From: Olsenella uli | GTDB lineage: Bacteria > Actinomycetota > Coriobacteriia > Coriobacteriales > Atopobiaceae | Direction: 5' to 3' | DNA: 64,000 bases | Assembly (NCBI RefSeq): GCF_016899935.1 | Contig: NZ_JACJJK010000005.1 | Location: forward strand, 62,001-126,000 | Part shown: positions 602 through 51,837 of the stretch, one piece after another | Position numbering within the stretch: position 1 is the first letter of the stretch | Layout: each line of letters opens with the position of its first letter | Program-made: the position numbers and the translations under genes | The notes under the pieces: generated by a model | Told to the model about the DNA's origin: nothing | Databases searched by the model: none | Seen by the model: the letters and a program-made list of their open reading frames with translations, nothing else

Positions 602-1112
602 CGGGGGCAAGCGCGGCGAGAAGGGCCTCGCGCCAGCGTGCCTCAAGCCGCTCCGCGGACCAGGCGGCGTTCGCCGGGCTCGTGGACGGCAGCGTCCCGG
701 CCGCGATGCCCGTCACGGGCTCCAGCCAGCGGTGATAGAGGCGTGCCGCCGTCCCGCCGTTGCAGAGCACGGAGCGAATCGGCGCCACGGACGTGACGCG
801 TGCCACGTCCGCCGGGACCACGTTCCGGATGGAGGCGTCCGCCGACCCGCGCACGTCGCAGCTCTCGATCACGTCCCACAGTGCGACGCTGTGGCGCAGC
901 AGCAGCGCGCGCTTGCCGGCGATGTCGTCCGTCGCGGGCTCCGGCTCGCCCAGCACGTCGGCCACCACGTGCCAGAAGCGGTTGCGCGGGTTGCCGTAGT
1001 AGAAGCGGTTCTCGCGCGAGAGCACCGACGGGAACGACCCCAGCACGAGCACCCGACTGCGCTCGTCGAAGACCGGCTCAAATCCGTGGGCTATGTGCTG
1101 GTAGGCGTTCAT
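597..1112 (-). CDS. DNA-deoxyinosine glycosylase (UDG family 6 / Mug-like)
   Basis: This 171-residue protein belongs to the uracil-DNA glycosylase superfamily, most like the hypoxanthine/deoxyinosine glycosylases (family 6). It should excise deaminated bases from DNA to start base-excision repair. Visible motifs are LVLGSFPS near the N-terminus (motif I), then YGNPRNRFW, LLRHSVALWDVI, SIRNVVPAD and LPSTSPANAAW at the C-terminal DNA-binding loop. The order matches this family. I chose the ATG at 1112 (MNAYQHI) because homologues start near here; a longer frame reaches 1169 but adds only Arg-rich sequence. No strong Shine-Dalgarno is visible for either start. It stands alone and is convergent with the sugar kinase. 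Confidence 0.85.
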   Translation of the reverse strand: MNAYQHIAHGFEPVFDERSRVLVLGSFPSVLSRENRFYYGNPRNRFWHVVADVLGEPEPATDDIAGKRALLLRHSVALWDVIESCDVRGSADASIRNVVPADVARVTSVAPIRSVLCNGGTAARLYHRWLEPVTGIAAGTLPSTSPANAAWSAERLEARWREALLAALAPE

Positions 1113-1258
1113 GCGGTCATGGTAGCGCGCTCGCCGCGCCCGCGCTACCGTCCGCCGGCGGCCGCCCACGCGCTCGGCGACTTTCCCGTACCGGATGGCG
1201 CGCGCGAACGTAAGGTTTATGGAGATGGGCCGCCACCTCGACCCCCGGAGAGGAAGCC

Positions 1259-1513
1259 ATGCTCGAGATTCCCTGCACCATCACCGACCCGCTGGGGCTG
1301 CACGTGCAGCTCGCGGTCCTTCTCGCCAGCGAGGCGCAGCGCTGGCGCAGCCGCGTGACCCTCGAGCACGCCGGGCGCTCCGTCGGGGTCTCGCAGCCCA
1401 TGGACCTCATGATGCTCGGGGTCCGCTCCGGCGAGCAGATCATCGTGCGCGTGGACGGCCCCGACGAGGCCACCGCCGCCGAGGCCCTTCGCAAGATCAT
1501 GGCGACGTTCTAG
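1259..1513 (+). CDS. HPr-like phosphocarrier paralogue
   Basis: This 84-residue protein has the full length and fold pattern of HPr, the histidine phosphocarrier of the PTS. His15 is kept in the correct context (DPLGLH). The usual Arg17 is Gln, the following Pro is Leu (VQLA in place of ARPA), and the regulatory Ser46 is Gln46. Loss of Arg17 should weaken normal phosphotransfer from enzyme I, and loss of Ser46 removes HPr-kinase control. It may therefore be a specialised or regulatory HPr, like the Crh and NPr paralogues in other bacteria. GGAGAGG lies 5-6 bases before the ATG. No PTS enzyme is adjacent. The HPr fold is a confident call; the function is inferred. Confidence 0.8.
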   Translation: MLEIPCTITDPLGLHVQLAVLLASEAQRWRSRVTLEHAGRSVGVSQPMDLMMLGVRSGEQIIVRVDGPDEATAAEALRKIMATF

Positions 1514-1529
1514 CAGGCATGTCGCATCC

Positions 1530-1620
1530 GGCGGGAAGGGACCTATGCCCGCCGCGAGTTCTGCAGCCGCGTCCTTTGCGGCGAAGCTGTCTGAGCGCCG
1601 GGCATGGGTCCCGTCCCGCC
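1530..1620. repeat. 22-base inverted repeat (hairpin) between convergent genes
   Basis: The arms 1530-1551 and 1599-1620 match at 20 of 22 positions. The 47-base loop holds a smaller GCCGC/GCGGC hairpin. It lies between the stop of the HPr-like gene (1513) and the stop of the LOG-family gene (1633). A bidirectional terminator is the simplest reading, although no U-run follows the stem on either strand. A structured small RNA is the alternative. Confidence 0.6.
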
Positions 1621-1632
1621 CGACACCGCGCG

Positions 1633-2400
1633 CTACCGCCTGATCTCGCTCAGCGCCACGCGTACGGCCTCGTCCTCGTCGTCGGTCATCACGACGAGCT
1701 CCGGGTCGAGCGGCGAGATGTTGCCCGCGTCCAGCACGGTCCCCTCGAGCCAGTCCATGAGCCCGCCCCAGTACTCGGTCCCGAAGAGCACCACCGGCAT
1801 GCGCGCCACCTTGTGCGTCTGCACGAGGGTGAGCAGCTCAAACGCCTCGTCGAGCGTGCCGAAGCCGCCGGGGAACACGATGGTCCCGCTCGCGTACTTC
1901 ACGAACATCGTCTTGCGCACGAAGAAGTACCGGAAGGACATCCCCAGGTTGACCCACTTGTTGATGCCCTGCTCGTGCGGCAGCTCGATCCCCAGGCCCA
2001 CGGACTTGCCGCCCGCCCGGGCAGCGCCGCAGTTGGCCGCCTCCATGATGCCGGGCCCGCCGCCCGTGATCACGGCGACGCCGGCCTGCGCGAGCTTGCG
2101 CCCCACGTGCCGCGCGGCGCGATACAGCGGGTCCGTGCGCGGCGTGCGCGCCGAGCCAAAGACGGTCACGGCCGGCCCCAGCTCCGCGAGCGCGCCGAAG
2201 CCGTCCACGAACTCCGCCTGGATGCGCAGCACGCGCCACGGGTCCATGTGCAGCCAGTCGGTGGAGTCCTCCGGCGCGAGCAGGTTGCCGGTCGTCGTGT
2301 CCGAGGGGATCATCGGCCCGCGCAGGATCACCGGGCCGCGATGGTAGGTGGTGCCGAGCTCCTCGTACTTCTCGTCCCTCTCGCCCTTCTCGTCCGCCAT
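1633..2400 (-). CDS. LOG-family protein (nucleoside-monophosphate phosphoribohydrolase)
   Basis: This is a 255-residue Rossmann-fold protein of the LOG/TIGR00730 family. Members cleave the N-glycosidic bond of AMP or cytokinin-riboside monophosphates. The family hallmarks are visible: GGGPGIMEA in the middle and PGGFGTLDE further on, with the catalytic Arg/Glu context. An N-terminal extension of about 60 residues (YEELGTTYHRGPVILRGP) is typical of the longer actinobacterial forms. The ATG at 2400 is preceded by AGGAAGGAG. A longer open frame exists upstream, but it overlaps the neighbouring intergenic region and has no ribosome site. The gene lies downstream of the FeoAB fusion gene on the same strand. 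Confidence 0.88.
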   Translation of the reverse strand: MADEKGERDEKYEELGTTYHRGPVILRGPMIPSDTTTGNLLAPEDSTDWLHMDPWRVLRIQAEFVDGFGALAELGPAVTVFGSARTPRTDPLYRAARHVGRKLAQAGVAVITGGGPGIMEAANCGAARAGGKSVGLGIELPHEQGINKWVNLGMSFRYFFVRKTMFVKYASGTIVFPGGFGTLDEAFELLTLVQTHKVARMPVVLFGTEYWGGLMDWLEGTVLDAGNISPLDPELVVMTDDEDEAVRVALSEIRR

Positions 2401-2519
2401 GCTCTTCTCCTTCCTGTGGGAGAACCACGCTACGCCGCTCGGGTCAGCGGCAGGTAAGCGGCCCATGTGGTCCGTGTACCCGTTTTGCGCGCGGGCGAGA
2501 AGGACGTGCGGCCGACGGC

Positions 2520-4874
2520 CTACCCCAGCCCGAGCGCCATGCCCACGAGACGCACCGCGAGCGCCACGACCCACGCCACGCCGCACTGCATGGCGATCAC
2601 GGCCCACATCATGCGGGTGCCCAGCTCGCCGCGCACTGCGGAGACCGCGGCCACGCACGGCGTGTAGAGCAGCGTGAACGTGAGGAACGCGAACGCCGTG
2701 AGCGGCGTGAAGAGCTCCGGCAGGCCCGCCGTCGTGCCGCCCATGAGGACCGTCAGCGTGGCCACGACGTTCTCCTTGGCGCCAAAGCCGGCCGCCAGGG
2801 CCGCCGCCGCGCGCCAGTCGCCAAAGCCGAGCGGGGCGAAGAGCGGGGCCAGGAGCGCCCCCAGCGCGGCGAGCATGCTCTGAGCCTGGTCGTCCACCAC
2901 GTTGAGGCGCACGTCAAAGGTCTGCAGGAACCAGATCACCACGCTCGCCACAAAGATGACCGTGAACGCCTTGGTGGCAAAGCCCTTGGCCTTGTCCCAG
3001 GCCAGGCGCGCCACGGTGCGCGGCGCCGGCAGGCGGTAGTTGGGCAGCTCCATCACGAAGGGCACCGGGTCGCCCTTGAAGGCTGTCCCCTTGAGCACGA
3101 GCGCCACCAAGATCCCCACCACGATGCCCATCACGTACATCGCAATGGTCACGAGCGCCGCCTGCTCCGGGAAGAACGCGGCCGAGAAGAGCGCGTAGAC
3201 CGGCACCTTGGCCGAGCAGCTCATGAACGGCGTGAGCATGACCGTCATCTTGCGGTCATGCTCGGAGGGCAGGGTCCGCGTGGCCATGATCGCGGGCACG
3301 CTGCAGCCAAAGCCGATGAGCATCGGCACGAAGCTCCGCCCGGAGAGGCCCAGGCGCCGCAGCAGCTTGTCCATCACGAAGGCCACGCGCGCCATGTAGC
3401 CAGAGTCCTCGAGGATTGAGAGCAGGATGAAGAGCACCACGATGATCGGCAGGAAGGAGAGGACGCTCCCCACGCCGGCAAAGACGCCGTCGATGACCAG
3501 GCTATGCACCACGGGGTTGAGCCCAAAGGCGGTGAGCGCGGCGTCCACCTGCGCCGTCAGCCACTGGATGCCCAGGTCCAGAAGGTCGGAGAGCCGCTGG
3601 CCGATCACGTCGAACGTGAGCCAGAAGACGAGCGCCATGATGGCAATGAAGACCGGGATCGCGGTGTACTTGCCCGTGAGGATGCGGTCGGCGGCCACCG
3701 AGCGCGCGTGCTCGCGGCTCTCGCGCGGCTTGACCACGCACTCGGCGCAGACGCGCTCGATGAACGAGAAGCGCATGTCCGCGAGCGCCGCCATGCGGTC
3801 GCGCCCGGACTCCTCCTCCATCTGGGAGATGATGTGCTCCACCGCATCGAGCTCGTTGGGCTCCAGGCCGAGCGCGCGCTGGACGAGGTGGTCGCCCTCG
3901 ATGAGCTTGGTCGCCGCAAAGCGCACCGGGAGGCTCGCGGCGGCCGCGTGGTCCTCGATGATGTGGCAGATGCCGTGGATGCAGCGGTGGAGCGCACCGC
4001 CGTCCGGGCCGTCCGGCGAGCAGAAGTCAACGCGGCCCGGGTGCTCGCGGAAGCGCGCCACGTGTAGCACGTGCTCCACGAGCTCGGAGATGCCCTCCTC
4101 GCGCGCGGCCGAGATGGGCACCACGGGGATGCCGAGCGCCGCCTCCAGCCGGTTCACGCTCACCGTGCCGCCGCCGCCCGTGAGCTCGTCCATCATGTTG
4201 AGCGCGAGCACCATCGGCCGGTCCAGCTCCATGAGCTGCAGCGTCAGGTAGAGGTTGCGCTCGATGTTGGTGGCGTCCACGATGTCGATGATCGCGTCGG
4301 GGTCGTCCTCCAGGATGAAGCGGCGGGAGACCACCTCCTCGCTCGTGTACGGGGAGAGCGAGTAGATGCCTGGCAGGTCCGTGACCGTGACCTCGGGATG
4401 GCCCTTGATCTGGCCGTCCTTGCGGTCCACGGTGACGCCGGGGAAGTTGCCCACGTGCTGATTGGAGCCCGTGAGCGCGTTGAAGAGCGTGGTCTTGCCG
4501 CAGTTCTGGTTGCCGGCGAGCGCCAGCTTGAGCGGGCGGCCCTCCGGGATGGCCTTTCCGGTGGCGCGCGGCGCGTACTTCTCGCCGATGGCAGGGTGGT
4601 CGGAGGCCTCCAGGCGCTCGCGGCCCTGCGGGAGGTCGTGCATGTCGTGCACCTGGGTGAGCGCGATGTGCCGCGCGTCGTCACGGCGCAGCGTGAGCTC
4701 GTAGCCGCGCAGGCGGATCTCCAGCGGGTCGCCCATCGGGGCGCGCTTCATGAGCGTGACCTCCACGCCCGGCGTGAGCCCCATGTCCAGGATGTGCTGG
4801 CGCAGCGACGGCTCGTCGCAGTCCACCGACGCCACCACGGCGTCCTTGCCGATCTCCAGCTCGTCCAGGTTCAT
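2520..4874 (-). CDS. feoB: Ferrous iron transporter FeoB with fused N-terminal FeoA domain
   Basis: This 784-residue inner-membrane Fe2+ transporter carries a FeoA (SH3-like) domain at about residues 1-75 (DMGLTPGVEVTL, GDPLEIRLRGYEL), joined to a complete FeoB. The G-domain starts near residue 115 with the P-loop GNQNCGKTTLFN, then DLPGIYSLSPYTSEE (switch II) and NMMDE (G4). The Gate/core membrane region follows, with GFGCSVPAIMATRTL and the second-half Cys-containing motif YTPCVAA. The start at 4874 has GAGGAGG five bases upstream. A separate FeoB with two free FeoA proteins lies at 32.9-35.9 kb, so this genome has two Feo systems. No GTTA-N8-TAAC palindrome of the kind found at the second locus is visible here. 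Confidence 0.95.
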   Translation of the reverse strand: MNLDELEIGKDAVVASVDCDEPSLRQHILDMGLTPGVEVTLMKRAPMGDPLEIRLRGYELTLRRDDARHIALTQVHDMHDLPQGRERLEASDHPAIGEKYAPRATGKAIPEGRPLKLALAGNQNCGKTTLFNALTGSNQHVGNFPGVTVDRKDGQIKGHPEVTVTDLPGIYSLSPYTSEEVVSRRFILEDDPDAIIDIVDATNIERNLYLTLQLMELDRPMVLALNMMDELTGGGGTVSVNRLEAALGIPVVPISAAREEGISELVEHVLHVARFREHPGRVDFCSPDGPDGGALHRCIHGICHIIEDHAAAASLPVRFAATKLIEGDHLVQRALGLEPNELDAVEHIISQMEEESGRDRMAALADMRFSFIERVCAECVVKPRESREHARSVAADRILTGKYTAIPVFIAIMALVFWLTFDVIGQRLSDLLDLGIQWLTAQVDAALTAFGLNPVVHSLVIDGVFAGVGSVLSFLPIIVVLFILLSILEDSGYMARVAFVMDKLLRRLGLSGRSFVPMLIGFGCSVPAIMATRTLPSEHDRKMTVMLTPFMSCSAKVPVYALFSAAFFPEQAALVTIAMYVMGIVVGILVALVLKGTAFKGDPVPFVMELPNYRLPAPRTVARLAWDKAKGFATKAFTVIFVASVVIWFLQTFDVRLNVVDDQAQSMLAALGALLAPLFAPLGFGDWRAAAALAAGFGAKENVVATLTVLMGGTTAGLPELFTPLTAFAFLTFTLLYTPCVAAVSAVRGELGTRMMWAVIAMQCGVAWVVALAVRLVGMALGLG

Positions 4875-16134: not shown

Positions 16135-16225
16135 CGGACCCTCCGTCCTTCTCGCCTGAGACCAGCTTACCGTTCGCACCGGACAACAATGGGCGAGAAG
16201 AACCGCGCCGCCGTCCCCGCAACGC

Positions 16226-17831: not shown

Positions 17832-18506
17832 CTAGATGCGGAAGAGGTACCCCACGCCGCGGATGGTGACGATGTGGCTCGCGACCTGCGGGCCCACCTT
17901 GGAACGGACGCGGCGGATGTGGACGTCCACCGTGCGGGTGCCGCCGCAGTACTCGAAGCCCCAGACGCGGTGCAGCAGCGTCTCGCGCGAGTAGGCGCGG
18001 CTGGGGTGCGTGGCGAGGAAGCTCAGCAGCGAGTACTCCATGAGCGTGAGGTCCACGGGATGCTCGTCGATGTAGACCTGGTAGGTGGCCAGGTTGATCG
18101 TCATATTGTCGATCGTGACGATGTCGGCCGGCGCGCTCTCCTCCCCCGGCCAGAGCAGCAGCGTGCAGCGTAGCTCGAACTCCGCCGTGCCCGCCGTGGA
18201 GAGGATGAAGTCATTGGTGCCCTGCGTGGGCATGCGAAGCATGGCGAGCTTGTCCGGGTCCTGGACCAGGAGGCGCGGGATGAAGCCGTTCTCCGCAACG
18301 AAGGAGTCCACGGCGTTGAGCAGGTCCTGGCTCATGCCCTCGCCGTCGAGAATGACGAGGTCGAACTCGTGACCGGACGAGACGGCCTGGGGGAAGGTCT
18401 CCTCGTTCGCGAGCGCGATGGAGACGTCGATGGCGTGCGAGAGCTCGCGCATGCGGTCATGCAGGCGCGTGGTTGCCGATATGAGCAGGATGTTCTTGTG
18501 ATGCAT
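17832..18506 (-). CDS. OmpR/PhoB-family response regulator, atypical receiver, orphan
   Basis: This 224-residue protein has an N-terminal receiver-like domain (about 1-115) and a C-terminal winged-helix DNA-binding domain (about 130-224). The latter has the family pattern LTLMEYSLLSFLATHPSRAYSRETLL...RTVDVHIRRVRSKVG. In the receiver, an Asp remains in LVILDGEG, but the usual pair of acidic residues at the start of the domain is missing (ISATTRLHD). Phosphorylation may therefore be absent or different. No histidine kinase is nearby. GGGAGGGG precedes the ATG. It may control the adjacent htrA gene through the TGACAC direct repeat. Confidence 0.85.
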   Translation of the reverse strand: MHHKNILLISATTRLHDRMRELSHAIDVSIALANEETFPQAVSSGHEFDLVILDGEGMSQDLLNAVDSFVAENGFIPRLLVQDPDKLAMLRMPTQGTNDFILSTAGTAEFELRCTLLLWPGEESAPADIVTIDNMTINLATYQVYIDEHPVDLTLMEYSLLSFLATHPSRAYSRETLLHRVWGFEYCGGTRTVDVHIRRVRSKVGPQVASHIVTIRGVGYLFRI

Positions 18507-18597
18507 CCTGAGGCCCCTCCCAAAGCTTCAGCACGAACACGTGAATGTTACCACAACGTCCAACCATCCTCATACGCACACGAGGAGGTCCCTCGGG

Positions 18598-18661
18598 GGC
18601 CCTTCGGCGTTCCTCCAGGGAGTGCGCTGCGCGGAACTCCCTTCCGGAACGCCGAAGGGCC
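18598..18661. repeat. Large hairpin element, copy 1
   Basis: A perfect 16-base stem (arms 18598-18613 and 18646-18661) encloses a second stem, GGGAGT/ACTCCC, capped by GCGCTGCGCGGA at 18624-18635. Read on the minus strand the cap is TCCGCGCAGCGC, almost identical to that of copy 2. It lies between the ABC operon end and the regulator gene. Confidence 0.8.
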
Positions 18662-18666
18662 ACGCA

Positions 18667-18734
18667 GGGCTGCCCCGATGTTCCGGAGAGAAGTTCCGCG
18701 AAGCGCACTTCTCGGAGGAACATCGGGGCAGCCC
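18667..18734. repeat. Large hairpin element, copy 2 (opposite orientation)
   Basis: A perfect 18-base stem (arms 18667-18684 and 18717-18734) encloses GAGAAGT/ACTTCTC, capped by TCCGCGAAGCGC at 18695-18706. The stems differ in sequence from copy 1 but pair perfectly, while the cap differs at one base (after reversal). It ends 33 bases from the stop of the ATP-binding protein gene, so it could also end that operon's transcription. Confidence 0.8.
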
Positions 18735-18767: not shown

Positions 18768-19547
<780 letters not shown>

Positions 19548-20876: not shown

Positions 20877-20933
20877 GGTTCCTCGATTCGACGTTCTTCT
20901 CGCCCCGTGGGCCGAAGCCCTTGGACGCGAGAA

Positions 20934-51727: not shown

Positions 51728-51837
51728 CGCCACCGATTGTACCCGTTCGCAGGCCTGCATGCACGGGATTTCGGGGGAGCGGGGTCCGGGACGGGCCTCG
51801 TCTCCCCCACGATCGGCGAGAAGAACGCCCGCTCGCG

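What the first reader, a model, noticed from the sequence alone, without database searches (positions are those of the whole stretch)
18598..18734. Two facing hairpins with covarying stems and a conserved cap
Copy 1 and copy 2 are in opposite orientation. The outer stems (16 and 18 perfect pairs) and inner stems (GGGAGT and GAGAAGT) differ between copies yet stay fully paired. The caps TCCGCGCAGCGC and TCCGCGAAGCGC differ by one base. Conserved loop with covarying stems is the signature of a structured RNA or of a palindrome recognised by a protein, such as REP-like elements. I know no named family with this cap.
Basis: seen in the sequence. Interest (0 to 1): 0.75.

Follow-up and report, generated by a model that had tools for sequence, protein, structure and literature searches.

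The report
Gene-end hairpins with a conserved cap
The two hairpins belong to a previously undescribed family of large palindromes that mark the ends of genes in Coriobacteriales gut bacteria; their stems change freely but stay paired, while a small cap, known to be a very stable DNA mini-hairpin, stays the same.

Summary
The two hairpins (18598-18661, 18667-18734) belong to a family with at least 17 copies in this genome, present in all 31 sampled genomes of the genus (Thermophilibacter-like Atopobiaceae), and rarer in other genera of the order. On 42 representative copies, 23 of 26 stem pairs covary (233 double changes against 7 single). Fixed parts are the loops: a GNA/GNA 3x3 loop, a TY/C loop and a GNA triloop, d(GCGNAGC). 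Position is strict. Of 82 elements none lies between divergent promoters. In 61 the cap-sense strand runs into a stop codon (median 24 nt away), over 22 gene families; in 21 it runs into a gene start or promoter. Pairs always point outward, as in the window. At rplX, relatives carry a plain U-tailed terminator at the same place, or the same stem without the cap module. Stop-adjacent copies have a T-rich tail on the mRNA strand. I conclude that most are terminator-type hairpins with an added structured cap, organised like REP/BIME repeats but without a GTAG tag, conserved stems or dependence on a RAYT gene. What the cap does is unknown; DNA-level recognition is plausible and unproven. The window pair itself lacks a T tail, so its termination role is inferred.

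The parts
18598..18661 (-). Hairpin 1 (S strand = minus): outer stem 16 bp, 3x3 loop GGA/GGA, inner stem 7 bp, cap TCCGCGCAGCGC; sense orientation, 91 nt upstream of the start of the OmpR/GlnR-like regulator gene
   Evidence: R2 87.1 bits
18667..18734 (+). Hairpin 2 (S strand = plus): outer stem 18 bp, 3x3 loop GGA/GGA, inner stem 7 bp, cap TCCGCGAAGCGC; antisense to the upstream ABC ATPase gene, whose stop is about 34 nt away
   Evidence: R2 88.6 bits
18624..18635 (-). Cap of hairpin 1, containing d(GCGCAGC) (GNA triloop, N = C)
18695..18706 (+). Cap of hairpin 2, containing d(GCGAAGC) (GNA triloop, N = A)
18545..18550 (-). Likely -10 box TAACAT (after TGTGG) of the regulator gene, 47 nt after hairpin 1
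   Evidence: sequence; aligned in relatives; consensus only
18768..19547 (-). Glutamine-type ABC transporter ATPase whose 3' end the pair follows
   Evidence: Pfam ABC_tran 5.4e-36
17832..18506 (-). OmpR/GlnR-like transcriptional regulator, downstream of the pair
   Evidence: Pfam Trans_reg_C 1.6e-22; GlnR_1st weak, below cut-off

Best explanation
The hairpins are gene-boundary (terminator-type) palindromes carrying an extra structured cap. The variable outer stem is a transcription terminator stem placed about 24 nt after a stop codon. The inner part (GNA/GNA loop, 7-bp helix, TY/C loop, 3-bp helix, GNA triloop) is a conserved module on top of it. In single copies the mRNA-side strand ends in a pyrimidine/T-rich tail and probably terminates the upstream gene as an intrinsic terminator. 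In outward-pointing pairs, as in the window, the first hairpin closes the upstream gene and the second lies directly upstream of the next promoter, separating the two units. Shown: positions, polarity, covariation, replacement by ordinary terminators at one orthologous site. Inferred: termination and insulation. Unknown: the cap's role; conserved G and A on one strand suggest that this strand folds, as DNA or RNA, and is recognised.
For: (1) 0 of 77 elements with both neighbours known lie in divergent intergenic regions, although 7 of 34 sizeable window gaps are divergent. (2) 61 elements next to a stop codon all have the same polarity, over 22 gene families; median distance 24 nt. (3) At the rplX 3' end most genomes carry the capped hairpin, three carry a plain U-tailed terminator at the same place, and one carries the same outer stem as a relative's without the module. 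(4) T in the 8-nt mRNA-side tail: 2.85 against 1.12 on the other side, Wilcoxon p = 1e-9. (5) 23 of 26 pairs covary, 99.2% of cells pair, no shuffle reaches this. (6) At the window's own locus relatives keep paired hairpins with compensated stem changes. (7) In the start context a -10-like box follows the element, in many copies within 7-47 nt.
Against: The window pair and other paired copies are less T-rich in the tail (2.17 against 3.14 for singles), and the window copies have no U-tract. A plain terminator needs no conserved cap. About 17 copies cannot serve a whole genome, so the family is at most a subset of terminators. Long perfect stems with hardly any wobble (2079 of 2132 Watson-Crick; G.T 17 against A.C 13) are not typical of RNA-level selection. 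No expression data were available.
Confidence: 0.62

Rival explanations
1. REP/BIME-type repeats: small palindromes once spread by a transposase acting on folded single-stranded DNA, now sitting at gene ends, with incidental effects on termination and mRNA stability.
For: Dimers in opposite orientation, location between co-directional or convergent genes and downstream of coding regions match published REPs (PMC3733652). Several enterobacterial REPs carry the same GCGNAGC cap (PMC2817692 Table 1). G192 has 35 similar copies, many as outward pairs 1.7-2 kb apart bounding non-coding inverted-repeat units. Presence/absence varies at rplX and glnQ.
Against: No GTAG/GTGG head in the flanks (0 of 55). 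Stems are not conserved in sequence. Two of three near-complete genomes without any Y1_Tnp protein (G004, G019) still hold about 7-11 matches. Orthologous copies diverge by compensated changes, so they are old.
Confidence: 0.35
2. A polar DNA-level element: the S strand extrudes as a DNA hairpin with GNA loops and is bound by a dedicated protein that blocks transcription or another process from entering genes.
For: G and A of all three GNA sites are nearly invariant while N takes all four bases. d(GCGNAGC) is an extraordinarily stable DNA mini-hairpin (PMC4686876). Every element points outward from the intergenic interior. No strand bias in wobble pairs and near-absence of wobble pairs. Collinsella-type relatives have perfect stems of about 30 bp or more.
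Against: No partner protein identified. T-rich tails on the mRNA side point to ordinary RNA-based termination in single copies.
Confidence: 0.2
3. A structured regulatory RNA (cis-element or sRNA).
For: Very strong covariation with a conserved loop.
Against: Both polarities relative to neighbouring transcripts, no common gene function, no Rfam match, about 33 two-sided changes per one-sided change.
Confidence: 0.08
4. A double-stranded operator recognised by a transcription factor.
For: Palindromic; some copies lie just upstream of promoters.
Against: Stem bases are not conserved, so there is no base-specific site apart from the cap; most copies are at stop codons of unrelated genes.
Confidence: 0.03

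Closest known systems
REP / BIME / REPIN repeats with RAYT transposases (GTAG super-family)
   Same: Intergenic palindromes, downstream of genes, in inverted pairs; some enterobacterial REPs share the GCGNAGC cap
   Different: No GTAG head, stems 26 bp or more and freely covarying, strict polarity to gene ends, not dependent on a Y1 transposase today
CGTC-tagged palindromic repeats (PMC3733652)
   Same: Inverted dimers at gene ends, no dedicated transposase; CGTC/TGTC is somewhat enriched in the mRNA-side tail (23 of 55 against about 9 expected)
   Different: Stems of 8-9 bp there against 26 or more here; in our copies the motif is not fixed next to the stem
Intrinsic (Rho-independent) terminators
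   Same: Position after the stop codon, GC-rich stem, T-rich tail in single copies; direct replacement at the rplX site
   Different: A conserved multi-loop cap module and much longer stem; paired copies without U-tract
attC sites of integrons
   Same: Structure rather than sequence conserved; one strand favoured; fixed orientation at gene 3' ends (from general knowledge)
   Different: Not gene cassettes; housekeeping genes; no recombination tested or shown

Membership tests
Intrinsic terminator | Hairpin shortly after a stop codon | tested here: met
   61 elements, median 24 nt from stop; the window's hairpin 2 about 34 nt
Intrinsic terminator | U-rich tract directly after the stem | tested here: inconclusive
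   T-rich in single copies (3.14 of 8), weaker in pairs (2.17), absent in the window pair
Intrinsic terminator | Stops transcription | not testable with these tools
   No transcript data
GTAG REP (RAYT-associated) | GTAG/GTGG head next to the palindrome | tested here: not met
   0 of 55 in the S 5' flank of stop-context copies; at most chance level in the other flanks
GTAG REP (RAYT-associated) | Associated RAYT/Y1 transposase | tested here: not met
   Elements present in G004 and G019, which lack Y1_Tnp; no Y1 gene was found flanked by the elements, though this was not searched systematically
REP/BIME organisation | Inverted pairs outside divergent promoter regions | tested here: met
   18 of 18 pairs outward; 0 of 77 divergent
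CGTC repeats | CGTC at one end, stem 8-9 bp | tested here: not met
   Stem 26 bp or more; motif enriched but not fixed in place
Rfam RNA families | Score above gathering threshold | tested here: not met
   only miRNA models far below threshold

The most novel reading that the evidence does not exclude
A lineage-wide gene punctuation system in Coriobacteriales: outward-pointing palindromes at gene borders that are read as a folded DNA strand through a GNA-capped hairpin by a dedicated protein, with stems kept perfect by arm-to-arm copying rather than by RNA pairing.
Probability: 0.18. Interest if true: 0.88.

Novelty: new variant of a known kind. Interest (0 to 1): 0.6.

Why it matters
It is, as far as the held literature shows, an undescribed family of structured gene-end palindromes in a poorly studied gut lineage. 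It offers a clean case for asking whether a conserved hairpin cap acts at RNA or DNA level, how long palindromes stay perfect while their sequence turns over, and how terminators and REP repeats are related.

Tried and rejected
Rfam at gathering and permissive thresholds: nothing real. BLAST against phages and plasmids: none. Pattern scans of public genomes and viral contigs: mostly chance matches in GC-rich DNA; of the loci checked with the model only Olsenella/Thermophilibacter ones were strong. A RAYT source: genomes without Y1_Tnp keep the elements. Wobble-strand test to decide between the strands: 17 against 13, undecided. RNA and DNA folding energies of the two strands differ little (S lower by 0.9 and 0.5 kcal/mol). 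The gene caller was a simple codon-usage script, so single neighbour assignments can be wrong (two start calls overlap the element).

Full report
Observation. The window holds two imperfect hairpins of identical architecture in opposite orientation. I call the strand with the cap TYCGCGNAGCGC the S strand and its complement the A strand. Layout on S: outer stem (16 bp and 18 bp here), 3x3 loop GGA/GGA, 7-bp inner stem, TC/C loop, 3-bp stem, triloop. Copy 1 has S on the minus strand (18598-18661), copy 2 on the plus strand (18667-18734). They lie between the stop of an ABC transporter ATPase gene (18768-19547, minus) and the start of an OmpR/GlnR-like regulator gene (17832-18506, minus).

Family. 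The cap pattern has 16 hits in the genome against 3 for the reversed control; nine of them are true hairpins by folding. A covariance model from six copies finds 17 elements in this genome and matches in all 31 genomes of the genus; the family and order searches show few or weak matches elsewhere. Contig lengths identify some genomes of the genus as Thermophilibacter provencensis, Olsenella uli An733 and O. profusa An794. Matches also occur in other genera of the family and in a second family of the order, where the stems are longer and the cap is GTTYGCGNAGCCCAC. A second form replaces the 3x3 loop by YAA/GT (for example gatB and gdhA).

Structure. On 42 representative copies 99.2% of cells pair, 23 of 26 pairs have double changes, 233 cells change on both sides and only about 7 on one; no shuffle or slid control comes near (representatives were chosen with at most two non-Watson-Crick pairs). 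In the looser set of 82 copies 2079 of 2132 pairs are Watson-Crick, with 17 G.T and 13 A.C on the S strand. The loops are the fixed part: GNA at the triloop and on both sides of the 3x3 loop, N taking all four bases, while the 3-bp closing stem itself covaries. d(GCGNAGC) is known as an extraordinarily stable DNA mini-hairpin with a G-A pair in the loop (PMC4686876). The invariant G and A would make sheared pairs on S but only pyrimidine mismatches on A (inference), so S looks like the folded strand. This does not decide between DNA and RNA.

Position and polarity. With a codon-usage gene caller on about 60 loci, 82 elements were placed. Neighbour classes relative to S are (-,-) 48, (+,+) 20, (+,-) 9 and divergent (-,+) 0, although 7 of 34 window gaps of at least 70 nt are divergent. 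In 61 cases the gene on the 3' side of S ends there: its stop codon is a median 24 nt away. These cover 22 gene families including groEL, rplX, pnp, leuS, truB, ftsX, gatB, gdhA and the window's ABC ATPase. In 21 cases S leads into a gene start, and a -10-like hexamer often follows, TACAAT at 7-9 nt at uvrA. All 18 pairs seen point outward. The rule is therefore that S always points from the intergenic interior into the nearest gene.

What occupies the site elsewhere. At the rplX stop the same place carries the capped hairpin in most genomes, with several different outer stems; plain U-tailed terminators in G026, G021 and G007; and in G020 the same outer stem as a capped relative but a 5-nt loop. 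At the window's locus eight genomes keep the pair with stem changes that are compensated, G004 has a single recombinant hairpin, and roughly half of the genomes have an unrelated simple hairpin just before the regulator's promoter. Stop-adjacent copies carry a T-rich A-strand tail (2.85 against 1.12 T in 8, p = 1e-9), more so in singles than in pairs. Hence the outer stem behaves as a terminator stem and the inner part is an add-on.

Mechanism. Most likely single copies terminate the upstream gene and pairs fence off two transcription units. The window pair has no T tail, so this is inferred from the family for the window itself. Why the cap is kept is open: binding of a protein to a folded strand, resistance to nucleases, or descent from a mobile palindrome. 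The near absence of wobble intermediates suggests arm-to-arm copying of the palindrome (inference), but the 3x3 mismatches are retained, which argues that they are selected.

Comparison with known families. The arrangement resembles REP repeats, which are reported as opposite-oriented dimers, downstream of genes and between co-directional or convergent genes (PMC3733652). Several enterobacterial REPs contain the same GCGNAGC cap (PMC2817692). But the GTAG head is absent, stems are not conserved, and genomes without any Y1 transposase keep the elements. CGTC repeats have 8-9 bp stems. I therefore do not file it as a REP; it works like a mixture of terminator and BIME. Literature searches found no description in these bacteria, within the limits of an open-access library.

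Limits. There are no transcript data. Many copies are orthologous, so counts by gene family (22 stop, 6 start) are the honest unit. Copy numbers are lower bounds for the other structural forms.

Noticed in passing
window 16192-16203 (+), 20893-20904 (-), 51815-51826 (+): The 12-mer GGCGAGAAGAAC occurs 233 times in this genome (0 for the reversed control), about 80-360 times in every other genome of the genus tested, and only 0-7 times in other families of the order. It is found after stop codons, before promoters, in some genes and as tail GTTCTTCTCGCC of terminator-like hairpins; it could be an uptake-type or terminator motif.
   Followed up: partly
L374 about 785-3010 and similar units in L375-L385 (genome G192): A related complete genome has many non-coding units of about 2 kb with long imperfect terminal inverted repeats and nested hairpins of this family, all pointing outward; no long ORF inside the unit examined. 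Possibly a non-autonomous mobile element.
   Followed up: partly
L273-L300, rplX-rplE junction: The ribosomal spc operon seems to be interrupted between rplX and rplE by a terminator-type hairpin and a gap of about 265-680 nt in this genus.
   Followed up: no
L308-L331, upstream of the GlnR-like regulator: Many genomes of the genus have a simple hairpin, about CAACGCCCCCGT-loop-ACGGGGGCGTTG, directly abutting the -10 box of the regulator gene, where the window genome has hairpin 1.
   Followed up: no
L310 (genome G004): A single hairpin joins the left arm of one partner with the right arm of the other, a visible recombination product of the pair.
   Followed up: no
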